This document shows, one piece after another, positions 20,926-37,816 of a stretch of DNA of 64,000 bases (position 1 is its first letter; every line of letters begins with the position of its first letter). The translations under genes were made by a program, and so were the position numbers. The notes under the pieces are model-generated. The model saw only the letters and a program-made list of their open reading frames with translations. It made no database searches and was not told where the DNA came from. Source of the stretch: Parasitella parasitica (taxonomy: Eukaryota > Mucoromycota > Mucoromycetes > Mucorales > Mucoraceae); contig MU619263.1 in the NCBI GenBank assembly GCA_025201805.1, positions 55,804 to 119,803 of the forward strand, written 5' to 3'.

Positions 20926-23900
20926 CTACTCTTCATCTTCATCCATCGATTCATCCTCCTCTTCACTACTTTCACCCTGAGCAACCTCCAGGTCTATATC
21001 CAGCTCTTGATCACAGCCGTTGTAGCTGTCAGACATTAGATACACCTTCATTGTATGCTGGCCAGCCTTGGGAGCCACAAAATCAAGTTTCACTTGCAAT
21101 TTACGCTGTAATGTCACCCTCTTAATAGCCAGCAATGTCTTTGTTTCAGGATCGCCGATAACAATCCACCAGCCTTCATCCTTCTCCTTGGGGAAGAAGG
21201 GTGCGATAACAGGTCCAATGTCATGTTCTTCCTCATCATCATCTTCACGTTCGAGCTGAACTCTAACATTTACGATGCCCCCTGCAGACACAGATTCTTT
21301 ATCGGCAACCTCAAACCCAACTTCAACACTAGGGTATCTATTGACGAAGCGAACTACCTCACGCAATTTGCGTTGATCCATACGGAGACAATCGTTACGC
21401 TTATCCTCATCCAATTCCATAATATCAAACACAGACTCAACTTCATTGGCTTCAAAGCGCTTGATAACTTCACTGGTGAAATAAGGAATCTGCTTGAGAG
21501 GTGAATCGCGATCCCACATGGCTTGGACAGACATCTGTGACAACTCCATAGCAGCTAAAGCAGGCGACAACCAGCCATTGGAAGAGATGACATCCACACA
21601 GGCCTGTAAAAGAGGAATCACCTTTTCAACAATGACGTTTTGATCAGATTGAAGGTCTGGGGGTAATTGGACACGAGAGAAATGCGCTTGTAGCAAAATG
21701 TTGGTCTTGATTCTCGGTGTGTTAAATTTGGGCGTTGCTAACTTGGCAGGCACACGATCATAGATTCGCTTCAACACCGCCTCCTCATGATGACGAATGG
21801 GGATGTTGTCAAACTCTGTTGCAGAAGACACGATTTCCAAAAGACCTCTGAGCTTGGTAGTGTTTTTCAAACTGACACTAAACATATCCACAGTCGTATA
21901 GTTGATATTGTAGTAAGCAGCAATCATACCTAAATTGAGAGGGCTGATATCCATCTCATCTTCAATGGTGATACATTTGGTTTCCTCCAGATCCGTAAGA
22001 GTGGTTTCAACAAGCTCTGAAAGATGGTCAGACAAATGACGATGCGAAGTACCTTGCAGACCGTAGTAATTGGGGTTGTGTGCCATACGCCTGTACAAGA
22101 ACGTCCAAGTGAGATAATCGACCGCATCTTGCTTATTTTCAATAGTCTTGGTAACAATTTCAGCGTTGAAATGGTCGTGTAAGAGCTGATCTAGATGAGA
22201 CTCAACAGGCAGAGCTTCATACAGGAACTTCTTGTAGAATTCCTTCTTGTTAGGTTGACACATCAAGACACATTTACCAGTTTCGTCGACATTAGGACGG
22301 CATGCACGACCCATCATTTGTAAGACATCGGTAATGGGGTAGTCAGCATAGCGATGCTCTTTGCCCTCAAAGTATTGTGTGCCCATGATAACGACCATAT
22401 GAGAATGGAGAGTAAGGCCCCAACAAGTATCACGAGAGGCAATGACAACTTGAATAGCACCCGTCTCGTAAAGTTGCTCGACAATCTTCTTGTCCTGCTT
22501 GGAAAGTGCCTCGTGATAGAAGCCGATACCGTGCTGCAGAGTCTCAACCAAAGATTTGTCCTGCACACGATCCAACAAGGATTGGATTTCCTCCAATTTG
22601 CAGTGCAAGAATTGATGAGGCTTGTCATCGGCAACACAGTACGTGATCAGATCAACAGCTGTCAATTTGCATTGCTTTCTAGACGGCACAAACACGATAG
22701 AAGGCTTGTTGTTGGCGTAAGCAGTGATCGCAAGGTAAGTGGGCTTTGCCATAGCGATCATGAGCGAAGCAAAATGAGGAACATTGTAGCTTTGAATATG
22801 GATTTCCAAGGGAACAGGACGCACAGAAGGATGGAAATTGAACACGGTCTGAGAGGTTGCACCAATCCATTCACCTAAATCACGAGCATTAGCAAGAGAA
22901 GTGCCCATAGCAACAATACGAATCGCCTTTTGGGTTTGAGAGGCTATATAACGCATTCTTGACACAATTACTTCGTAGGTTGGGCCAAGGTCACCGCCAA
23001 TCATATGAACTTCGTCAGCAATGAAAAGATCCACATTCTGGACATTCTTTCTTTGCTTCCAACGGCGAGAGATGACATCCCATTGAGTCGGGGTAGAGCA
23101 AATAATATCACCACGCTCCAACAGCCTCAAATCAGCACTAGTTTCGCCAGTCAATGCAACGACTACTTTGTTGAGTTTACCAAACTTTTCAGCCCATTCC
23201 GCAACACGCTCATCAACTAATTCTTGGTAAGGAGCAATGTAGATAGCACGTGCATCGCTTGTCTGGTTCCATAGATGGAGAAGAGCAAATTCTGCACAGA
23301 TTGTTTTGCCAGAGCCAGTGGGAGCACCAATAAAGGCATTCTCATTAGTGGTGTACAAGGCATTGAAAACTTGAGTCTGCACAGGATTGAAGTGGTTGAT
23401 CCAAGCAGAGTAGAGTTTTTCATATTCAGGGTTGTTCAAACCAGAGATGGGCAATGGTTGGAGATCATGCAGTTCCGTGTGAGGCGCATACTTTTCTGGC
23501 AGAATCAAGTGCTTGAAAGACACAGGCAGCTTGGTTTCACAATGCAACCATCGATCAGCAACAATGGTGACATAGTAGTTGGGAGGCAGGGGCTCAAAGA
23601 GAGGCACCGTAAACGACACCAAATGCTCTTCTTCCGCATATCTTTGCTTCAGGACGAAATAATCATGATGCAAAATATGCTCACCATCGACATCCTCAAC
23701 CAAAATCCAGAACGCTTCAGCCAAGCCATGCACTTTTTCGTCCCATTGGAAATCAGGAGTGATAGTCAGTTCCACCTTGAGCAAAGAGCGAGTAACAGGC
23801 TGTACATGAGCTTGGAGATCCAGCTTGGGGAATTGATGAACAAATTTGTGTAAATTGCGGCCCGCCTTTGGTTGACCGATGAGCTCACCAAGTTCTTGTG

Positions 23901-26900
23901 GATTCAAGTCAAAGTATCTCTCCCAAGGGAACTCCTTGCGTTCCAAACGGCGAACAATATCCTGCGGCATAGCTTTGAACTGGCGCAAGGGAGACATGGG
24001 CAACCACATGCGCTTCTCCACCATTTTGCACAGATTCAAAGCCTTCTTGGTCAATTGAGCCCAACCACGTTTCAAACAGATTTCAAACATGGCGCGGATA
24101 ATACGGCCAGCGCTCTGGGTAACATAAACCATGTCAGACGTCAAAGCAAAGCCATCCAGTTTGAGTTGAGATATGTAAGCTTGCAACAAAACGTTGATTT
24201 TGGCTGTGGGTTCTTCAAGACTCTCCTTTACGGGCACAGGCACACGTTCAAGCAGCTTTTGTAATTCCATCTTTTCCTCCTCGCGAACAGGGATATATTT
24301 GAATTCGTCAGAGAGTGCAAAGACGCGGAAAAGCTCGATTTCGCTCATCATGGGGCGCAAGTGTTGGTTGTAAGTAGACATGGAGTGATGCGTGACATAA
24401 TAATGAGAGGCAATGCGACCCAGTTCAGTCACCTGGAAACGGCCAGACTTTTTGTCATACTTGATGAGGTTGCACTTGTCCAAGACTGAAGCTGCTGAAT
24501 GGATCAGATCAACGCGCTTTTGCTCTAAATGAGGATCGTCTTCGATGTCGTCTTGAGAAATATTGTACAGTGAGGGGTTGCGAAGCATACGAACATAAAG
24601 ATATGTGTAACCCAGCCATTGAACAGCTTCATCACGGTTTCTGATAGATCCTAGCACAATTTCAGCATTGAGGTTGTCTGCCAAACGAGAAACAAATTGA
24701 GATTCGATAGGAAGCTGTGTGTTCAAAAGCGACAAGTAATACTGCAATTCTGAATGAGCAGTAATGATGATACCCTCGCCATACGTATCGAATTGTGGAC
24801 GACCAGCACGACCCAACATTTGGAGGACATCTTGAGGAGAGAGCTCAACCCAGCGACCCTTTTCTGGCGAATATATTTGCGTCCCCTTGATGATAACAGC
24901 ATGAGCAGGTAAATTAACACCCCAAGCAAGAGTAGCCGTGGAGCAAAGCACCTTGATATGACCATCAGCAAACAGCTCTTCTACAAGCGTTCGGTCAGCA
25001 CGAGTCATGCCAGCATGATGAATAGCAAAGCCATAAGGCAAAAGGTCTTGTAGGTTAGCGTCCTTGACAGTAGCAGCTTCTGATTGCAAAATTTCACGAC
25101 TAGCAGAATCTTGCTTCAAGAAGCGAGTAATTGTATCCTTGTCCAAAGCCATGTCACGAAGAGTCTTTGCAGTCTTGGCAGTCTCCTTGCGAGAATGAGC
25201 AAACACAAGCACCTGATTCTCTTCCCTTTGATCAATTTGTTCAATCACCTTTTCATAGCACACTTCATTCATAGTTTGGAAACGCTTGATGGCCTTCTTC
25301 TCAGTGATGCCGATGAATTGCTGTTTCAGGGGACAAGGGCGGAAAGAGCTGTCAAAATGGAACAATCCAGTTTTGTTGTTAACACGCAAGAAAGCTGCAA
25401 CGTCGACGTAGTTGGGTAAAGTAGCTGACAGACCAACAAGACGCACAAGCTCTTGAGTTTGCTCCATGTTGCGAATAGTACGTGAGATGATACTCTCCAG
25501 GACGGGTCCACGATCGTCATGCAACAAGTGAATTTCATCAATGATGATAAGGCGTACTAGAGACGTATAACTACGATCAGTGGCTTTGCGAGTAATGACA
25601 TCCCATTTCTCTGGCGTTGTAACAATGATTTGTGTTTCGGCAATCTGTTGCTTGGTAAGTTGTCGATCACCAGTTAGCTCGGCAACACTGATACCATAAG
25701 GCTTGAGACGTTGGCTAAAGTTGCCAACCATTTCAGCAACCAGGGCCTTCATTGGGGCGATGTATACAATTTTGAATGCATCCAAATCAATCAAACCAGT
25801 TTCAGGGTCGCGATTTTTACCCATCTCATGCAGAATAGTAAGCATCGCAACGTTGGTTTTACCAGCACCAGTAGGAGCACACAACAAAAGATTCTCATCA
25901 CTGCCAAAAGCAGTAGGGTAGAGTCTGCTTTGGACACGATTAAGAGTGGTTGGACCAACAAAGGCCTCTTGAGCCCATTCAGGCATGGATTTGATTGGCA
26001 CGAGCTTCTCCCCAGTAGCAAATTGCTCGGGTTTGGGTGCAGGTACATGAATCTCCTCATAGCCCTTCTTGGAGCGTTTAAAAGACCCGTCGGGAAGTTT
26101 GACCTTTTTGTTGGACATGAGGTGAGAGCCTTGCTCAAAGGCGAGATCGTCTAAATCAATTAGTTGACGTGGGGCAACCGTAGTGCCTGGTGTAATTGTC
26201 ACTGTAGTGGGCAGTTGTCCACGGCTGCGATTAGTGACTGATTCCTCCTTATCAATCTCCATAGCTGTATCAACAACTCCCTTTCTTTCCAGCGCTTCAC
26301 CACGGCGTTGACGATCGCCACTAAGGATACGCAAGATCCAGCTCAAATTTCTGTCCTCCATTTCTTTTTCTACAGCAGTTTTATCCGCACCATCTACACG
26401 AGCAAGACGTGTACACCAGTAGATGAGGTCGCGGTTCTTGGTGAGGATTCGAACGAGGTCAAATTTATCATAGTCAAACAAGCCCATCAATTCGTTTTCG
26501 CAATCACGAATATCAATCTTTTCAGATCCCAGAATGTCGAATGCCTGTACAGTTTTTTCTTGAGCAGTGTGCGCATCAGGGTACTGAGCAGCAATCTGGC
26601 GCTGAAGCCAGAAGGCATCAATGTCATGTGGAAAAATGGAATCATCATCTTGAGAAGAATCCGCTTTCTTGTGTGCTTTTTTCTTGCCCTTTTCTTGTCC
26701 AGGAAGAACTGTTTTGAAGCCATCCTCTTCGTCTGTTGACTCAGGCTCTTCCTCGTCTTCAGCAGCTGGAGCAGCGGTTTCTTCATCTCCATCCTCCTCT
26801 TCGTCGTCTTTCATTTCATATTGATCGTCTTCTTCTTCTTCATCGTCATCGTCATCAAAGACAACAGCAACACCAAGTTCATCATCAATTTCCCCGACTT

Positions 26901-27519
26901 TATCGCCGTTTTCATCGATATCCATTGCTTCACCATCTGCTGAATAATCTGTGATTTTCTTCGACAGATTCACCAACTGCGCAAAATGTTCAGATTCAAT
27001 GTGGCCAATAACTGATTCAATTTCCTTCTTCTTGTCAAAGTCTTTGAGCGTATCCGTCTTTAGCGTTTCCAACACGTCGTCTGCAGCGCTTCTGATGACA
27101 TCGCGAGCTTGATCGCCCAAATGTTCATACACAAAAGACAGAATGTGTTCATACGCTTCGCGTGTTTCTTTGGTGCGAGGTCTGTAGTTGAGGCCTTCCC
27201 AATCTTCAGTGGCTGAAAGAACTGAAGAGTAGCCATACGCCTTACTGATGGCTTTTTCTTCCTTCTTTTTGCGTCTTTTTTCATTCGAATCATCAGAGCG
27301 TTTTGCAGCTGCCTTTTTTTTTTTCTGCTCAATATCTTTGGGTGCCTCTCTCTCTACACGTGAGCCAAATTCTTTAGGGTCGATTTTACCCCACAGTGTA
27401 TCGGGTTCTCCGGTAGGCTCTTGATCTCTACGAGGTAGTCCTTTGCGGTTTGCTTGCAAAACCAAACTGGAGGTTGCGGCATATTGATACTGATTTGCTT
27501 TAGCAAAGTTTTCAGCCAT
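20926..27519 (-). CDS. BRR2: Brr2 U5 snRNP DExH helicase
   Basis: Spliceosomal ATPase that unwinds U4/U6 during activation. One uninterrupted exon of 2197 residues, the expected length. An acidic N-terminal region (runs of D/E near residues 220-270) precedes the PWI-like part, then two Ski2-like cassettes. Cassette 1: motif [10 protein letters not shown] near residue 550, [11 protein letters not shown] near 660, SATLPNY near 700, motif [12 protein letters not shown]; its Sec63 unit follows. Cassette 2: APTGSGKT near 1400, DEVHMIGGD near 1505, GTSLANARD where cassette 1 has SAT, and GRACRPN; then a second Sec63 unit. This split between an active first and degenerate second cassette is the known Brr2 design. 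The C-terminus is acidic ([14 protein letters not shown]). Start chosen at the first [16 protein letters not shown]. Confidence 0.97.
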
Positions 27520-28168
27520 TTCTTATAATTAGGTGTATAAAAAAATTACAGGAAAGCTTTGATAAATAATTGCAAGCTCTACAGATAGTCATCAGGTCAA
27601 ATTAGATGTTATTTTACATGGGATTTCAACTGTACTGTACCAAGAGATTATTAGATAAAGTGAGTTGTAGCTACGAGTTCAAGTTCAAGAGAAAAAGAAA
27701 AAAAAAAAGCAATGTCTGAAAACTGCAGCTTTCGCAAGATATAGAATTATTGGGGGCGCGTCGTTGCGTCATTAATGTAGTGGCTTGCGATACATCAATA
27801 AGTGTGGCATCAGTATCACAATAGTCTAATGCTTCTAGGCCTGAGGTGGTCGTGCTCAACCCTTCGAGATGAACGACTGGCATCAAAAATGAAAGAAGAG
27901 ATAAAAAAACCCATGGAATCTGCTGTACCATTGAGTGTGGATGCTTCTGTCGAAAAAACTACAGACATACATTTGACAACTACCTTGGAAAATGGCATAA
28001 TTGGTTGGTGAAGGTATAAATATATACTAAATATTTACGCAAGCCAAGATAGAATAGCAAATAACAGTTTTGATAAAAAGGCTTTAGATGACAATATAGT
28101 ATAAGCCTAATAGACTTATGCCTCTGCTTTCTTGTTGCATAGTTTTTTTATCCCATGCTGCGGCTGTT
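27520..28168. other. Intergenic with unresolved short frames
   Basis: Two overlapping frames compete: a minus frame 27671-27931 starting MVQQIPWVFLSLLSFLMPVV (signal-peptide-like) and a plus frame 27802-28011. Neither has a family signature and they cannot both be real. I annotate neither as a gene. Confidence 0.35.
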
Positions 28169-28510
28169 TCACCAATAAGACTTTTTAATCACTACGTGAG
28201 TTACTTTATTCTTCTTGACAAGCGCAGGATGCTCAAATTCTTTCCATACAGTATTGTCTCTTGTCTCGACCTTTGGATTAACTACGAGAGTTGCCGCTCC
28301 ACTAGCCAAACGAGATAAAAAGTAAGCACAATACTTAGATGTGCATAATTCCATGATGCGATCAGCAATTCTTCCTCCCACAGTTCGCTCAAGAATTTGT
28401 ATATTTCAAGTTACCATTGAACATAAAGTTTTCAGCCTCTATCAGTACACTTCTTTACGGAATTTTATGTAACCACTCCAAAATACCTGATCAGGGGAAG
28501 TTGATGTCAA
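28169..28510 (-). pseudogene. Broken paralogue of the CD38-like gene at 34.9 kb
   Basis: Reverse-strand translation matches the intact gene block by block: FWSGY near 28460, AENFMFNGNLKYTN near 28420 (intact copy AENFMYHGDLKYTN), then GGRI, SRLASGAATLVV (intact KSASGTVTLVL) and VWKEFEHPALVKKNKVTHVV (intact VWKRYELPALVKNSKVTQVV). Breaks: a base lost just after FWSGY, stops right after it, a stop after KYTNS, a frameshift before GGRI, and a stop replacing the end of the domain. The N-terminal half is missing or unrecognisable. The catalytic-position Glu in KEFEHP is retained. Confidence 0.7.
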
Positions 28511-28615
28511 TCTTTACTGCGAGATTGTGAGCGTGTCTACGCTATCAAATGCATTATGTTCCTTGGCGTAAAATTTTTGAGCCCTCGTTTCAGATTTTTC
28601 ATGTTATTCTTGTCT

Positions 28616-28970
28616 TCATCCACCAACTGAAAAGGGTCGGTTATTTCTATCGTTTCTCCTGCGCCTTGCCAGTCTTTCAGCTCTAGTTTCTTCCTGTTGT
28701 CCAAAAACTGAAGCATCTGATTCTTCCGCTTGATAGCTCTTCATACCAAAGAGAAGCTGAGCGGTGTTAGCCATGGCTGACACTTGGTCTCTACTCAACA
28801 CCCTATATCTGTTTGGGCAGCTCTCATTCAGACATAGATTGGAGCCATTAAGGGTCTAAATAATGTCTTGTGACGAGGCCGAAAAAATCGGTTTAAAGTT
28901 TCAGGACGTGAGGTGTCGCCAAAGAAAACATTGCCTGACGAACACCATAGACAAAAAAAAAAGATCAACG
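28616..28970 (-). pseudogene. C-terminal remnant of a Fanzor/TnpB-like protein
   Basis: Reverse strand encodes CLNESCPNRYRVLSRDQVSA, then MANTAQLLFGM, then a basic tail (RAERLARRRRNDRNNRPF) and a stop at 28616. A CxxxxC half-finger followed by RDxxAxxN is the end pattern of Fanzor/TnpB proteins (zinc finger then the RuvC-III RD...A..N). Upstream frames (KTLFRPLM, ETLNRFFRPRH) look like the region before the finger but contain stops. No upstream RuvC-I was found nearby, so only the end survives. It is on the opposite strand from the 3-kb element and looks like a different subfamily. Confidence 0.4.
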
Positions 28971-28979
28971 ATTTCAAAA

Positions 28980-30059
28980 TGGTCAGGCCCGAAGAGACGT
29001 CTTTCGTCTTAGGGTCGTATAATAACGATGATTGGGTAGTGCCTACATCTTTGGACCATGGACTGATGGCTAAATGCGTACATCATCTGAATTATTGTTT
29101 TTTGCTGTTTATATTTGGAAGCCAATAGATAAAGAAAAACAGAAAAACAGTTCTCATAATTAAATGTTAGCACCATTGTTCGCATAAGGATTAATTGGGA
29201 ATGCACAATAAATTTGTCACACAATTTACCTTGTCGTCTGAAATCCATTAGTGTTGGGTTTTATAGATTGCGCCATGTGATAGCTGAAAGTTATAGGTCT
29301 ATTGAAATCCGGTGAAACTCTTGGACACACACTGGACCTCGGTAAAATCAAGGGGGGCAAGCTCTGAGGATATCATTGATGGACATAGTAGACCATACAA
29401 GTTCGAATAGAATTGCTTTCCATACCGATAATTTTACTTGGACAGAGAAAGCGCAAGTGAGTAGCATCTTTTATTGTTGACATATTTAGTAGAGAGGGAA
29501 GTCTGCTACTTGAAAGCAATGTAAAAAGTCGTTTGTAGGATATTGCTCTAATAAGAGATGGGTGCTGTACGAGAGTCAGGAATAATGACCAAAATAATTT
29601 ATAAGATATAGTAGCCATAAATGATCTGGTACAAGCTTTACGAAAGGAATTTGTGGAAACAATGGTGTGAAAACCCATTTGGCCTCGTCTCGTTTATGTA
29701 GTCCAGAGTATAGCTTATATGATACCTTTTTTGCCAGAACTAGATACTAACAGAAATAATAGACTGTATGTCACTTTGGGTTAACGGCGTTGCACGCTCA
29801 ATATACCAAAATTCAGCCAGAATGAGATAATTAAGCGCTGTAGCTTTACCGACGACTGAAAAATTCGACTAGAAGTTGATCAATTTATTACGCTCATATC
29901 AATGATGGTGATATTGGCAGCATTGTACTTTTTTTTAGTTCTTCGATTTAGAATATTATGTTATGCTATGATTAGGAGTTTTTCTAAATTGGTGCTGTCG
30001 ATCTGGTATGAATTGCTGCTGTTCAATCGATATTCATAAACTATAACCATTATTTACAC
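28980..30059. other. Gene-poor, probably decayed DNA
   Basis: Short frames on both strands (plus 28913-29128, minus 29373-29678) have no recognised signature. No intact gene. Confidence 0.4.
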
Positions 30060-31439
30060 ATGCAGTATTTAAGCTGTGTTCCATTTGAAATTCTGCTCAA
30101 GATCCTCTCTTATTTGACATTCTCAGAGAAACTAAACTTCGCAAGTTCTTGTAAAAGATTGGAGCCCTTTATTTTGAAGGTGATCTTTATGAAGATTTCA
30201 AAGTTGAAGGTGAATGAACCTTCAAAAATTTTGTCAAACATTTCCAAGAAAGCGAGCCTCATCGAAAACAAGTGCGTCGCATGGACATATTCTACAATTC
30301 ACTTTATGTAATCAAAGCTACTGATGTAATAGCTATACCAAAGCAGCTTTCTATGCTTGAAGAACTTGGCTGGAATGATACCAAATATTGTTATGAGTCT
30401 GGTGAGTCTACTGAATTTAATGACGGTGAATATGATGGATACGATCGATTTGTCAATGAACAAAATGCAAAACACTGGGAAAATATAACTATTTTTCAAG
30501 AGCCCGACAAGTATCCATTTTAACCGTTGGAACCAGCTGAGGCTATTGAGACCCTAATGCAAGTTGTTGAGACAGCAGCTTTCAAAAGCTCCTAATCAGA
30601 AGAGACTCAAATTACGCAGGGGTGTAATGACTTTGCTTGATTTAAGCCAGCCGCATTCCAATATACAGCGACTAGATATCCTTTGTTTAGATCATATGGC
30701 CATAGGAAACTCTGATGGAGAGCATAACCTTTTAGTCTCGCACAGTATTAATGGGTCGACGAAGCTTCAGATTACCAACTATTCGCAGCAATACACTGAA
30801 ACCCTACTGAATCAGATTGCTGGAAAGAACCTAGATTTGGAAATCTTGAAAATTCACCACAAGAATGAACACAATGAGACGCATGATGAAGATCCGTTGA
30901 TCAAACGTTGTTTCCCATTGCCCTCATCTCGAGACTCCGGATGTCGGCATACATTCAGAAAAGCCAATAACACCAATAATTATGGAAGCAATAGATGCAA
31001 GTAAAGCCAAATCGAAAAAGACTATGAAAAAGATTCTTCGACATTATAACCCTTTTATGCAAATTAAGAAAGCTAACTTGCATGCAAACAAAAAAAAAAA
31101 AATTCTGTTCAGATTTATTGCATCCCAAAAAAACTGAAATTGTACGGTTTTTCAAATATTTGCCCTAAACTCAAGCATTTGGAAGTGAATGGTATGCACG
31201 ATGATTTTAACTGTGCTCCAGTATTCCCTATCACTGGATTTCTGAGGAAACTTCACTGTTTGGAAACAATCACACTAGAAAAATGGAAAATTCATTTTGT
31301 ATCTATCTGTAAATTCTATAATGAAGATTGTGTCTGGTCACAGAAATTTCGAGAGTTTATGTCGTTTATTTCGAAAAAATGTCCTGAGCTACCTAAAATA
31401 AGAGTTGGCTCTAATCACAAGTTAAGTCTGCAAGATTGA
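30060..31439 (+). pseudogene. F-box/LRR protein gene broken by frameshifts
   Basis: The frame at 30060 begins with a good F-box: LSCVPFEILLKILSYLTFSE followed by KLNFASSCKRLEPFI. The rest continues in other frames: DIFYNSLYVIKATDVIA after a shift near 30270, HFNRWNQLRLLRP after a shift near 30515 with TAA at about 30554, IQRLDILCLDHMAI, a further shift near 30920, then LKLYGFSNICPKLKHLEVNG and a last LRR-like part to 31439. Together the parts read as one F-box/leucine-rich substrate adaptor of an SCF ubiquitin ligase. No GT..AG pairs explain the shifts, so this is most likely a pseudogene; clustered sequencing errors are the alternative. Confidence 0.6.
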
Positions 31440-32998
31440 GTTTCTTAACCATGGCTTTGTATGTATCGCAATGAACCACCAGTATCTAGCAATAACTGAT
31501 AATCACTTAATGATGTATATAAAGGTCAATGGGTTCTTAGTCTTTAGACAATTTGTCTAGATCAATCTGTTCTCAAATATAAAACCTATGCTATCTTATG
31601 ATTGAAGCTTATGAACGTAATATATGCCATTTTATAATAAAATTATGCGTATCAAATCTCGTTGTTAGCGCTGTATATGGCAAATAAGAAATGAATTACA
31701 CAAATGATATTGCATCTGAAAATGTGAATAAGCTAACTGCTCAACTCGAGAAACATCGGCAGCTAGCATTTTTATTACCATGAACTAGTTTTTAGTCAGA
31801 AAATCAACTAGTTGCTAGATAACATTGTTTTTAAGCTACCGCACAAGCAAGTTGATGTGTCAGTAATGGCTGTATCACCAAGATTGCATACATAAATACC
31901 TTTTCATGGCTGAAGTTTTTAGATGCTTATTTCCCTCGATCTGTTGATACAAAGAGTAATAGTCGGATCGAATACACGCCCTCTTGACACACTTTTGAAG
32001 TGTCAAGTAAAAGTAAGCAATGCTTTCATTAAACAGAACAAAATATTAAAACAAAGTGATTTACATTTTTCAAATTTCGGCAAACACTAGATATACCTTC
32101 TGTACAAACTGGGTCAATATGATACAAAAACTCAAAGTATTAACGGATTGATATCAGTAACGGTATTAATAGCAAAAGTCTCAGAATAAGCTGTTGCGAA
32201 GGCAGCCGATAATTCAAAGAGTTACAATATGTAGCTTTTTTGTTATTTTATTGTCCCTCTACACTAGGCTCTCTATATGGCATATGAGTTGTGAATAATG
32301 AAATAACCTGCTACCTTGTCAGCGAGTAGATTATTACCAGAAAAATGCACCATATGTCAATTGTGAGATTAGGAAGCATGAGTGTCTAAGACGGCATCAA
32401 GTGACACATAAATGCTCAAATATACTTGCCAATGCTTTACGCGGTTATGAAAATTTATGCGTATTTTTTATTCAACGTATGAAATAACTCGACATCGTTT
32501 AAAATGAGCACGGAAAAGGTATTAATTTGATATAAGTGGATAACGCAATGGTGTTATCTGTGAAGAAGTTGCAGCAATCTTCTTACTGTGCCGTGTTTAG
32601 TATATCACATCTATGCATATATGTAGATCTTTATTATCAACGATACAAACAATATACTGATTTCAAAATAGCACAAAGCTATTCTGATGAAATTCGGGAA
32701 CTGCTCAAGCCGCCAACATTCACTTCAATATATCTTATTACTTATATTGATAGGGTATGCGTTTTAAGATATTACCAGCTATGCAAAATATATGATGGCA
32801 ATTCAAGAACCAAGGTCATATGCTGATGCCGTGCATGACAGAGAAAACGCAAGTCAGAAACAAACACTCAGATGTTCAGCTTTTTGTCATACAAACAAAC
32901 GTTGTTAGCAAATTAGTATCGCTGGTACTAAAGTATTTAACGCCTTTACAAAAGCTTTTTATCTTCTTCTTCTTCATTTATCTCTTTTTTTAAGCAAC
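31440..32998. other. Intergenic 1.5 kb upstream of Rab6
   Basis: AT-rich, no gene recognised. A short hairpin-forming inverted repeat (CTTGACAC ... GTGTCAAG) lies at 31983-32007. Confidence 0.4.
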
Positions 32999-34086
<1,088 letters not shown>

Positions 34087-34865
34087 ATTGACTCAAATCG
34101 CACTACTACATAATTACAAATAATTTTGAAAATCCTAATAAACAATAAGACACAATGACTCTAATAGGTATTTGGCTTTTCTAGTTGGATAATTTTCAGC
34201 AAATCGAGATGACACTGCACACGTTGGCATTAAAAAAAAAAAAAAAAAAAAATAAGCAGAAGTGTGTATATTAGACACAGGATACCATTTATGTCTTGAA
34301 TGTCAAAGCTTTTCATGGAGTATCGTGTACCATTGTTGGTCTCTGAGTAATTCTGATCTGTCATGTTATCATTCGAACAATCGTTGATGTAACAACGAGC
34401 AAATGATGGCAAGCCATTTTAAAAGACGTTCATAGTTGAACATTACATTGTCGATCTCTTTAATGTGCCTCTTTGTTGATAGAAATAATCAATGAGCGCA
34501 GTGATTGCTTGTGTTCAATCCCGGACGACTGCTGATACAAAAATAATTAGATGCAATCATCTCCAGCCATCGTTGATGGCATTCTTCATTCAACTAATCT
34601 TGGGTTCCGCTTCATTGTATGTGTTATCGATTCAATTGAATGCATTTGGCTCTGCAGCAAGGGCAAAACTCGATTTTGGTAGATTCAACTCAACAATGAA
34701 AGTAGCCAGACAATAACACTGCACTACATCAAATATGCCATTCCCTTTTTAATGAGTACCTTTGTTGTTTGATTCTCTATATAACAGGATTCTGACACAA
34801 AATACCTTTCTCTTTTCTAATTAAAAAACATACACAACTATTTTATTTATCAAAAACTACAGAAG
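34087..34865. other. Intergenic between Rab6 and the CD38-like gene
   Basis: Contains an A tract near 34231-34251 and the promoter of the CD38-like gene. A 74-codon plus frame (34492-34716) has no signature. Confidence 0.4.
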
Positions 34866-35657
34866 ATGGATATCCCCTTGGCCCTCGGTTTAAAATACAT
34901 TAAAGAATTGTTTGAAGCTGAAAATTTGAACATCAATGAATCTGACTCAAATAATCCCAATGAAAACAAAGTTAAAGCCGAAAAATTGACAAGACGTATT
35001 GAGATGTTCAAAGAAAAACGATTTTTTACATTTGATGAGAATGTGACGCAAATTAACAAATGCAAGCAAGAACTGCAAAAGTTGGGCGCACGGGATTGGG
35101 AAACAACAAATGATTTAAGTATGATCCCAGTAACACAGCATATGCTGTCTATTTATTTAAAGCTGGGTGAAATACAGTCAATGGTTGATACGCTGGATGT
35201 TTCGACTATTAAAGATGGATCGATCTTCTGGAGTGGTTACAATGAAATTCCTTCAGAAAGTGCACAGAGGGCGGCCGAAAATTTCATGTACCATGGCGAT
35301 TTAAAATACACAAATCTCGAGAGAACATTTGGAGGAAGAGTTGTGAACGGCTGGGAGCCATTAAACAATTCCCAGTACTATAATGACTTCTGGTCTCTAT
35401 TATCTGAAAAATATGCAAAGTCTGCTAGTGGAACGGTAACTCTCGTTCTTTGTCCTGATACTATTATTTCGAGAGGGCGTGCTGTATGGAAACGTTACGA
35501 GCTTCCTGCGCTTGTCAAGAACAGCAAAGTAACACAGGTAGTAGTCAAGGGTCTAGATGGCAAGACTATTGAAATCTGGGACAAGAAAACTATGGAAAAG
35601 GAAAATGAGCGAAACATGGAAGAATTGAATCTGCAAAACAACACTGCAGAAGCATAA
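34866..35657 (+). CDS. CD38/ADP-ribosyl-cyclase-like protein
   Basis: Single-exon gene for a 263-residue protein with no signal peptide or membrane segment, so probably cytosolic. Residues 1-115 are helical and unrecognised. Residues 118-230 follow the CD38/ADP-ribosyl cyclase pattern: FWSG (W122), LERTFGGRV (E152), FWSLLSEKYAKSASG (W176) and VWKRYELPALVKNSKVTQV (E212). In human CD38 the active site uses W125, E146, W189 and E226 in the same order, with similar W-to-E spacing at the end (37 there, 36 here), and the segment after the last Glu (E-hydrophobic-x-x-L...KV) also fits. If correct the protein would cleave or cyclise NAD. CD38's disulphide cysteines are absent, consistent with a cytosolic location. 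The tail (KKTMEKENERNMEELN) is charged. A broken paralogue lies at 28.2 kb. Identity is from motif comparison by eye. Confidence 0.6.
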   Translation: MDIPLALGLKYIKELFEAENLNINESDSNNPNENKVKAEKLTRRIEMFKEKRFFTFDENVTQINKCKQELQKLGARDWETTNDLSMIPVTQHMLSIYLKLGEIQSMVDTLDVSTIKDGSIFWSGYNEIPSESAQRAAENFMYHGDLKYTNLERTFGGRVVNGWEPLNNSQYYNDFWSLLSEKYAKSASGTVTLVLCPDTIISRGRAVWKRYELPALVKNSKVTQVVVKGLDGKTIEIWDKKTMEKENERNMEELNLQNNTAEA

Positions 35658-35912
35658 GTCTTGATATGCTTAAAAATTATCCTGTCTCCGTACACAAGAT
35701 TGTCTAGGCTCATTCAGCCTTATTTATTTTCTCAATAAACTGAAATATATTTAGTCTAGTTAGAATGTCTATAATCAATGCATGTATCCACGCCAAACAT
35801 GATTTAGAGTTGAAATTACTATACCTTGATGGGAGGTTTTATTAAATATGAGAATTATAAAGTATGTTGCTAAAATGATTTGAAATACAATCTAATATAC
35901 AAGAGTAACTTA

Positions 35913-37816
35913 TCAATTGCTACCTTCATCTACAGCAGCCGCATTTTCCAAACGTTGTAGCCGAGCTTCTCTTCTGTTTTTTTCATCTTGCTTTTCTTTT
36001 ACCTCTTGCTCTTTTTCTTCTTCTGTCACTTGAGGTAATCCGAGCTGCTTCCGCAAAGCCATCAATTCTAGTCGCATTTGATTTTGCTTTTCATCCTTTC
36101 GTTTATTGTCGTTTTTCAGCCTTAAAATGTACTCATAAGAGTGCTGTAATAAAACAACTTTGCTCATTTGTTTGACATCTTTTTCTTTCAGGTTGCGCAA
36201 TGTATCTATGTCCAATGTGTTTTGGGTTTCTTCCTCCACCATCGCTTCAATAATCTCGGTACGCAATGAATCAAAGCTCTGCTTTAATGTATCACGCCGT
36301 TTCTGTTCGGCTGCCTTGTGTGCTGATCGACGATTTTCGATGCCGGACTGAATGGTGGTGTTGAAATCGATGCCTAAACTTTTGGCTTTGCCTTCTTTGA
36401 GGTTTTCATAGTTTGATTTCGATGTCAGTAGGGCTCGAGCAGTTTCTTCCTCGATAGTTGATAGCCGCTTGCCATTAGGATGCAGAGACGGAGAGATCAA
36501 GGGCTTCAGCGCTCTAGGAGATTGCTGTGGACGAGGCCCAACAGGAGATACAAGGTTGCTGTCATTGGGCGATAATCCGGGTGATGAAAATACGGCAGAG
36601 TGTTGAGATATGCGGCGACGCTTAGATGATTTACTGCTTGTGGTATCTTCAAGCATGGCAGCTGGAAGCACGGGCATGTTATCGACAGCAGCAGACGACG
36701 ATGATATAGCAGGTACGCTGGATGGAGAAGAGGTCACATTACTGCTTGCGCTGCCACCGCCAAGCTTCATTAGAAGTGAAGGAGTAGCAGGGGCAATAAA
36801 GTTACTATCAACAGTTGAATTGCTACTGCTTGCTTTCGCTGGCGCTTTGTTGACAAAAGATGTGTGTGGAGTTACAGGCTTCAAAGCTAGAGAACTTTCC
36901 GCCGGTTTTGTAGATTTTGGTATAGCGTAACTTCTTGGACTGCCATTAAACTGAGGACTCGACAAGGCAATCTTCTGCTGCAGGGCTTTTTTGGTATTCA
37001 TTTTCGTTGCATTCGTATTATCATAGCAAAAATTAACAAGAGGACTTGTGTAGCCATTTGTGCTTTTTAGAATGGGCGATGCTTTTGAAATAGCCGGTCT
37101 TAATTGATTGTGCATATTCCGAAGTTGTTGCTGTTGTCTCTCGATAAAAGCCAACTTTTGCTGCAATGTCGATTGATCTCCAATGGAAGGCGACGGATTC
37201 AAAGCAGGAGATGACAGTGGTGAAAATACATGCTCAGGATTGTTGCTCACACTACTATTTAATGCTTGATGATAATTACTAGTGGGCGCCATAGCTGGTG
37301 ATACTAATGGAGTGAAAAATTCCTAGACAAATATTGTTGGTGACAAACAACTCGTATACACAAACAAGGAAATACCTCTTCTTCTTGAAAACCTTCTAGT
37401 GGGTTATTTTGCACTGAATGTTGCATTGGCGTATGATAAGATTGAGTTATGTTGCTGTTGCTGCTGCTGCTGCTACTGTTCTGCGGTGTATTGTGCGATG
37501 CGATTTGTAGAGGAGACATGTTGAATTCTGGGTTGTGTCCTGAAAGTACGCTGCTATTCGTAAAGCTCCCTTCCTGAGCGTCAGGACTGAGCTGAGGCAT
37601 AGAAAATGATCCATGAGGATTTTGATGATGTGCTTGGTGCCGATGCGCTTGTAGATTATTGTCTGTATAGGCGCTGTTGTTACTATTTTCTCCAATAAAA
37701 TTGAAAAAGTCAATGTTGTCTTGCATTTGGTGCGTATTGCTACTATTGCTGTTTAATTGAAAATTCTGCTTAAATAAATTTCCATCATCCTGGAGGTCGA
37801 AAGAGCTAAAATTCAT
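35913..37816 (-). CDS. bHLH transcription factor
   Basis: Nuclear DNA-binding factor. Two exons, 37816-37376 and 37322-35913, give 616 residues; the splice joins FQEEE to EFFTPLVSPAM, recreating a motif common in fungal bHLH factors. The N-terminal half is disordered, rich in Asn, Ser, Gln and Pro. The bHLH is near residues 455-535: basic region RRSAHKAAEQKRRDTL, helix 1 KQSFDSLRTEIIEAM, a long loop (EEETQNTLDIDTLRNLKEKD) and helix 2 MSKVVLLQHSYEYILRLK, followed by a coiled coil (MRLELMALRKQLGLP). His, Glu and Arg at the E-box-reading positions (H-AAE--RR) indicate CANNTG binding. It resembles Rtg3/Pho4-type or Ino-type factors; the exact orthologue is not certain. Confidence 0.88.

What the first reader, a model, noticed from the sequence alone, without database searches (positions are those of the whole stretch)
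34866..35657. Cytosolic CD38/ADP-ribosyl-cyclase-like protein in a fungus
Four aromatic/acidic landmarks of the CD38 active site recur in order: W122 (FWSG), E152 (LERT), W176 (FWSLLSEKYA) and E212 (YELPAL), with a 36-residue W-to-E spacing near the 37 of CD38. There is no signal peptide and CD38's disulphide cysteines are missing. A cytosolic NAD-cleaving or cyclising enzyme would be unusual for this lineage and could act in NAD control or defence. The unrecognised N-terminal 115 residues could be a regulatory or partner domain.
Basis: partly seen in the sequence, partly recalled or inferred. Interest (0 to 1): 0.75.

Follow-up and report, generated by a model that had tools for sequence, protein, structure and literature searches.

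The report
Bacterial-toxin-like NAD cleaver in mycoparasite fungus
A mould related to Mucor carries, inside its cells and without any visible export signal, genes for an enzyme that looks like the NAD-destroying toxin domains bacteria use against each other (and like human CD38), but no sign was found of the usual bacterial antidote protein.

Summary
The ORF is real: intact, single exon, 263 aa, in a Mucorales genome that is Parasitella parasitica or very near it. Residues ~111-235 are a true ADP-ribosyl cyclase (ARC/CD38) domain: PF02267 above its cut-off, and 57.5 bits to a model of bacterial ARC domains against at most 11.0 for 3000 shuffles. All four residues shown by mutation to matter in the bacterial ARC toxin are present. 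There is a second intact copy, a nearby pseudogene, and constraint on the domain between the intact copies (dN/dS 0.15). No Imm74 immunity gene was found in the genome, while 6 of 6 searched bacterial records have it just downstream. Fungal ARC acquisition from bacteria was already reported for Asco- and Basidiomycota (PMC3482391). Best reading: a cytosolic NAD(P)+ glycohydrolase of bacterial-toxin type, with a lineage-specific N-terminal region. Activity, fold and biological role are untested.

The parts
34866..35657 (+). Single-exon ORF, 263 aa, ARC (ADP-ribosyl cyclase / CD38-type) protein without a visible signal peptide
34866..35195 (+). N-terminal region, residues 1-110; no family found; the first 105 residues have no other match in the genome than the C24 paralogue; faster evolving than the ARC domain (50% aa identity, dN/dS 0.27)
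35196..35585 (+). ARC domain, residues 111-240; 78% identical to the paralogue, dN/dS 0.15
35229..35231 (+). W122 codon (FWSG), aligned with catalytic W273 of ARCtox
35319..35321 (+). E152 codon (LERT), aligned with ARCtox E299; by position the counterpart of Tac1 E516 and CD38 E146, which favour hydrolysis over release of cyclic ADP-ribose
35391..35393 (+). W176 codon, aligned with ARCtox W323
35487..35489 (+). W208 codon (VW-x(3)-ELPAL), in 32 of 32 rows of A5 (partly by choice of search pattern); not in the Aplysia segment
35499..35501 (+). E212 codon, aligned with the last catalytic glutamate (ARCtox E356; by position Tac1 E573 and CD38 E226)
34778..34783 (+). TATATA 88 bases before the ATG; the paralogue has one at -60
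   Evidence: motif match only
35734..35739 (+). AATAAA after the stop; the paralogue has one too
   Evidence: motif match only
28102..28573 (-). Degenerate copy (pseudogene) of the same family, several in-frame stops and frame changes, about 37% aa identity in the ARC part

Best explanation
[quoted passage not shown] It most likely binds NAD+ and NADP+ in a cleft lined by W122 and W176 (perhaps also W208), breaks the nicotinamide-ribose bond with E212 as the essential glutamate, and, because E152 is kept, mostly hydrolyses the cyclic intermediate to linear ADP-ribose rather than releasing cyclic ADP-ribose. The fungal lineage probably gained the domain from bacteria long ago, joined it to its own ~110-residue N-terminal region, and kept at least two intact copies. 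With no Imm74-type immunity gene found, the cell would have to restrain it otherwise; the N-terminal region or controlled expression are the likeliest means. The likeliest role is conflict: an NAD-depleting killer of the own cell, a partner or an attacker. Shown: homology, catalytic residues, copies, constraint on the domain, no Imm74 match in this genome. Inferred: activity, product, transfer, restraint, role.
For: PF02267 above cut-off for this protein and for P0002. Bacterial ARC model 57.5 / 61.9 / 49.1 bits for the three fungal proteins, best of 3000 shuffles 11.0. hhalign 98.2%. W122, W176, W208, E212 in 32 of 32 rows of A5, the 3 fungal rows included; the E152 column is E in 30 and D in 2, both D rows from one planctomycete record. 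The corresponding residues of ARCtox are needed for toxicity, and Tac1 E573 is essential while Tac1 E516A releases cADPR (PMC12605009 section 6; PMC12356396 section 7). Between window gene and paralogue dN and dS are 0.138 and 0.931 in the ARC domain, 0.385 and 1.415 in the N-terminal region. Imm74: no match in the own genome; 6 of 6 searched bacterial records (7 asked for, one too long) carry it just downstream of the ARC gene. GC3 0.386 against 0.383 for the neighbouring ORF, on a 283.7 kb contig.
Against: The fold was not modelled. The paralogue scores below the PF02267 cut-off (20.1 of 25). The fungal profile ranks Aplysia cyclase (E 7.7e-5) and CD38 (0.022) above the bacterial toxin 9ro8 (0.078). 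Direct tblastn matches to bacterial plasmids are weak, E 2e-3 to 0.8. The invariance of W122, W208 and E212 among the genome loci is partly built in, because the scan looked for FWSG and VW..E[LF]P patterns. In the tree the three fungal rows stand outside all sampled bacterial rows on a long branch, with no donor and few resolved forks. No expression, activity or toxicity data. A cytosolic NADase without an antidote should be harmful, which could mean low activity. The N-terminal region has no tested function. The Imm74 search covers one immunity family only; another could serve, and a comparison of flanking small ORFs gave only short weak matches.
Confidence: 0.7

Rival explanations
1. A signalling enzyme: a cyclase of CD38/Aplysia or Nac1 type that makes cyclic ADP-ribose inside the fungal cell to move calcium, with low turnover so that no antidote is needed.
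For: The fungal profile finds Aplysia cyclase better than the bacterial toxin. No Imm74 in the genome, as in the non-toxic bacterial Nac enzymes; Nac1 makes both cADPR and ADP-ribose (PMC12356396 section 8).
Against: Nac1 has alanine where Tac1 has E516; all three fungal proteins keep the glutamate E152. Restriction to one genus in the searches and a decayed third copy do not look like a core signalling enzyme. No fungal cADPR pathway was tested.
Confidence: 0.15
2. A stored or fusion-delivered weapon: the protein stays in the cytoplasm and reaches its victim when the cell is eaten or when the mycoparasite fuses with its host hypha and passes cytoplasm across, so no signal peptide is needed.
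For: No strongly hydrophobic N-terminus. P. parasitica fuses with its hosts and transports organelles one way into them (PMC4241652, passages). Characterised bacterial kin are effectors and one, ARCtox, also inhibits yeast growth (PMC12605009 passages).
Against: No evidence of transfer, of expression at the fusion site, or of toxicity. The parasite lives from the host, so rapid killing may not help it.
Confidence: 0.15
3. A decoy or inactive remnant: the ARC fold is kept for binding NAD or a partner, not for catalysis.
For: No immunity gene found, one decayed copy nearby, faster-evolving N-terminal region.
Against: All four catalytic residues and W208 are kept in three of three intact fungal proteins; the ARC domain is under constraint.
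Confidence: 0.12
4. Chance resemblance: the four landmarks recur by accident.
Against:: scores far above shuffled controls and above the curated cut-off.
Confidence: 0.01

Closest known systems
Bacterial Tox-ARC polymorphic toxin domains (ARCtox of Pantoea, Tac1 of Streptococcus; CdiA-, LXG-, PAAR-linked)
   Same: Domain of ~125 residues with FWSG, LE, a W..(x)S..YA stretch and VW-x(3)-ELPAL; E-to-W spacing 24; all four catalytic residues
   Different: No trafficking domain found, no Imm74 found in the genome, a fungal-only N-terminal region; best identities 33-37% over ~120 residues; last W-to-E spacing 36 instead of 33
Metazoan ADP-ribosyl cyclases (Aplysia cyclase, CD38, BST1; PF02267)
   Same: Same Pfam family above the cut-off, same four catalytic residues; FW before the YA helix and YELP at the last glutamate as in Aplysia
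   Different: No visible signal peptide, two cysteines only, 24 instead of 42 residues between first glutamate and second tryptophan, as counted by eye in the Aplysia alignment
Non-toxic bacterial ARC (Nac1 of Actinophytocola)
   Same: ARC domain without a known neighbouring immunity gene (PMC12356396 section 8)
   Different: Nac1 has a predicted signal peptide and alanine at the first glutamate; the fungal protein keeps E152
Fungal Tox-ARC of Ascomycota and Basidiomycota (Zhang et al. 2012)
   Same: ARC domain in a fungus, inferred bacterial origin (PMC3482391 passages)
   Different: Their sequences and architectures were not available to me, so no comparison was made; this one is in Mucoromycota
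Fungal surface NADases (TNT-domain, Aspergillus/Neurospora)
   Same: Fungal NAD+-cleaving enzyme, as predicted here
   Different: TNT domain, signal peptide, glycosylated (PMC7955114 passages); no TNT match in this protein

Membership tests
ADP-ribosyl cyclase family, PF02267 | Profile match above curated cut-off | tested here: met
   29.2 bits against 25; P0002 32.7; paralogue L002 20.1, below the cut-off
ADP-ribosyl cyclase family, PF02267 | Catalytic W, E, W, E in order | tested here: met
ADP-ribosyl cyclase family, PF02267 | Two-lobed ARC fold with the residues in one cleft | not testable with these tools
   structure prediction failed once and was then switched off
ADP-ribosyl cyclase family, PF02267 | NAD(P)+ cleavage | not testable with these tools
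   needs an assay
Metazoan CD38/BST1/Aplysia cyclase | Conserved disulphide cysteines | tested here: not met
   Cys 66 and 196 only
Metazoan CD38/BST1/Aplysia cyclase | Membrane anchor or signal peptide | tested here: not met
   hydropathy only, highest 19-residue mean among the first 40 positions 0.49, in the whole protein 0.91
Bacterial Tox-ARC polymorphic toxin | ARC toxin domain of bacterial type | tested here: met
   57.5 bits to the bacterial model, hhalign 98.2%
Bacterial Tox-ARC polymorphic toxin | N-terminal trafficking domain (LXG, PAAR, FHA/CdiA, Rhs) | tested here: not met
   no Pfam or NCBIfam match in residues 1-110 apart from DUF6392 at E 0.11
Bacterial Tox-ARC polymorphic toxin | Adjacent immunity gene, mostly Imm74 | tested here: not met
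   0 matches in the own genome (whose built-in controls were silent); the same search finds it in 6 of 6 bacterial records
Fungal TNT-type surface NADase | TNT domain | tested here: not met
   no TNT match in Pfam at E up to 10

The most novel reading that the evidence does not exclude
A mycoparasitic fungus has turned a bacterial toxin domain into a cytoplasm-to-cytoplasm weapon: the NADase is kept silent by its own N-terminal region and is set loose when hyphae fuse, either killing the own fused compartment (an allorecognition or anti-takeover switch) or crippling the host after passing through the fusion bridge, with no secretion system and no immunity protein.
Probability: 0.1. Interest if true: 0.85.

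Novelty: new variant of a known kind. Interest (0 to 1): 0.52.

Why it matters
ARC enzymes are known as animal cell-surface enzymes and as bacterial toxins with antidotes. A cytosolic fungal version without the usual antidote raises a direct question: how does a cell live with an NAD-destroying enzyme in its own cytoplasm? If active, it would link bacterial warfare domains to fungal cell death or mycoparasitism, in an organism that fuses with its hosts.

Tried and rejected
Chance resemblance was rejected with shuffled controls. Contamination was considered unlikely: the gene lies on a 283.7 kb contig, GC3 matches the neighbour, a second copy lies on another contig, and relatives come from other Parasitella records. 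An Imm74 partner was sought and not found (positive control). A partner gene shared by the flanks of both copies was sought by comparing small ORFs: 7 matches at E up to 0.1, the longest 24 residues, best E 3.9e-4 over 18 residues; I took them for low-complexity or chance and did not follow them further. WD-repeat hits at residues 224-245 were rejected as short repeat matches. DUF6392 at E 0.11 is absent from the two related proteins and was rejected. A close bacterial donor was sought: 46 loci in genome contigs; 7 of 72,556 plasmid records at E 2e-3 to 0.8 for the window protein and 6 for the paralogue; 2 of 398 genomes of one bacterial phylum, one of them the genome at the centre of the draw, already known to hold the domain. 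Best pairwise identities 33-37% over ~120 residues, none close. Phages: none for the window protein, two weak Listeria phage matches at E 0.08 for P0002. Viral contigs: none. The tree (quick method) could not place the fungal rows: 3 of 65 inner branches starred, Aplysia on a very long branch.

Rows dropped before counts: L042, L053, L054 and L055 (incomplete domains) of 50 bacterial rows, leaving 46 and then 39 distinct ones; 10 of 92 database proteins without a near-complete domain, and rows alike at 75% or more, 125 to 68; L007 could not be searched for Imm74 because its record is over 8 million bases. L008 (cyanobacterial) was fetched but not aligned. The 32 rows of A5 were picked by me from the fungal rows, and are not all independent: P0027 and L040 come from the same record.

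Full report
What was checked. The ORF at 34866-35657 (+) is intact, 263 codons and a stop, with no intron needed. It has a TATATA 88 bases before the ATG and AATAAA after the stop; the paralogue has both as well. These are motif matches only.

Identity of the genome. Residues 86-260 of the second copy (L002) are identical to the 175-aa protein P0003, named as Parasitella parasitica in the database. P0002, 78% identical to the window protein, bears the same species name. So the window comes from P. parasitica or something very near it; this is an inference. P. parasitica belongs to Mucorales, Mucoromycota.

Homology. Pfam gives PF02267 (ADP-ribosyl cyclase) at 29.2 bits, cut-off 25. By single sequence, the solved structures found include the bacterial 'ADP-ribosylcyclase toxin' 9ro8 (E 0.0015, residues 112-226), Aplysia cyclase (0.023) and CD38 (0.086), along with WD-repeat hits that I reject. 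With the three fungal proteins as a profile the order changes: Aplysia 7.7e-5, CD38 0.022, 9ro8 0.078. A profile that also holds bacterial rows finds 9ro8 at 5e-60 and Aplysia at 1.2e-7, as expected from its make-up. tblastn finds weak bacterial matches (E 2e-3 to 0.8) in 7 of 72,556 plasmid records, and a scan with a mixed alignment finds 46 loci in genome contigs; a scan with fungal rows alone found none there. A model from 39 distinct bacterial domains scores the three fungal proteins 57.5, 61.9 and 49.1 bits, against at most 11.0 for 3000 shuffles.

Active site. In alignment A5 (32 rows, 3 of them fungal), W122, W176, W208 and E212 are in 32 of 32; the E152 column is E in 30 and D in 2, both D rows from one planctomycete record. 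Part of this is built in: the scan looked for FWSG and VW..E[LF]P patterns. W176 and E152 were not in those patterns. The aligned residues of ARCtox (W273, E299, W323, E356) are each needed for toxicity (PMC12605009 section 6). In Tac1 the last glutamate is essential, and loss of the first one lets cADPR escape; Tac1 also has three active-site tryptophans, but the text I read does not let me match the third to W208 (PMC12356396 section 7). Spacings W-E / E-W / W-E are 30/24/36 in the three fungal proteins. In the 29 other rows the first is 26 in 19, the second 24 in 25, the third 33 in 29. I count 21/42/39 by eye in the Aplysia segment. The middle spacing and VW-x(3)-ELPAL are bacterial in type. 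FW before the YA helix and the longer last spacing lean towards Aplysia. Pairwise scores favour bacteria (55.5 against 38.5 bits), but as the best of 121 rows against one metazoan segment.

Copies and selection. The own genome holds this gene, a 260-aa paralogue on C24 (63%) and a decayed copy 6 kb away at about 28102-28573 (-) with several stops. Between the two intact genes dN and dS are 0.138 and 0.931 in the ARC domain and 0.385 and 1.415 in residues 1-110, so the domain is constrained and the N-terminal region evolves faster. The first 105 residues match nothing else in the genome at E up to 1 except the paralogue.

Surroundings. The gene sits in a gene-poor stretch between a 2198-codon helicase-like ORF at 20926-27522 (-) and a bHLH-like ORF at 35913-37322 (-) (labels from my reading of the sequence, no family search). 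Bases 28900-34400 have six matches, 64-69% identical, elsewhere in the genome, which look like old repeats. No Imm74 match exists in the genome (the tool's 14 control genomes were silent too). The same search finds Imm74 in 6 of 6 bacterial records, of 7 asked for, and comparison of coordinates places each just downstream of the ARC match.

Distribution. Two protein searches with fungal queries returned only Parasitella proteins: 3 of 455 candidates (E up to 1e-3) and 3 of 3644 (E up to 10), the window protein itself being one of the three each time. The word filter limits all three, and no animal CD38 was named among the hits either, so absence from other fungi is not proven. In a tree of 68 rows the three fungal proteins stand together, outside the sampled bacteria, on a long branch with no donor visible.

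Prior knowledge. Zhang et al. 2012 list Tox-ARC for Ascomycota, Basidiomycota, Capsaspora, choanoflagellates and animals, infer separate gains by fungi and animals from bacteria, and name Imm74 as the main immunity protein (PMC3482391, passages). Two 2025 papers show the characterised bacterial toxins to be NAD(P)+ hydrolases (abstracts, passages and sections). Searches for a study of such an enzyme in fungi or Mucorales found none besides Zhang et al.: searches gave no paper, only Zhang et al., two papers unrelated by their listing. Known fungal NADases found are TNT-type with a signal peptide (PMC7955114 passages).

Verdict. The domain call is firm (about 0.97). NAD(P)+ cleavage is likely (about 0.8), mainly hydrolysis more likely than not (about 0.6), a conflict role plausible (about 0.4). 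What is new is the setting: a probably cytosolic gene pair, constrained in its ARC domain, without the usual antidote gene, with its own N-terminal region, in a fusion mycoparasite. What is not new is the fold, or the idea that fungi took ARC domains from bacteria.

Noticed in passing
window 28102-28573 (-): Decayed copy of the same ARC gene with several stops and frame changes, 6 kb from the intact gene.
   Followed up: partly
L002 1474-2256 (+), G000:C24: Second intact ARC gene, 260 aa; its residues 86-260 are identical to a shorter database model (P0003), so that model may start too late.
   Followed up: partly
window 28900-34400: Gene-poor stretch with six matches, 64-69% identical, elsewhere in the genome, probably old repeat remains.
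   Followed up: partly
window 20926-27522 (-): Open frame of 2198 codons that reads like a U5 snRNP helicase (Brr2 type; label from reading only).
   Followed up: no
PDB 9ouf_A: Chain labelled 'Ribonuclease' is an ARC domain by sequence (203 bits to the ARC profile); the deposited name may be inherited from an older annotation.
   Followed up: no
L008 2243-3091 (+), Gloeothece plasmid: Cyanobacterial hypothetical protein with a partial ARC match (query residues 164-236, E 6e-3); by eye its last motif looks nearer to Aplysia than to the toxins.
   Followed up: no
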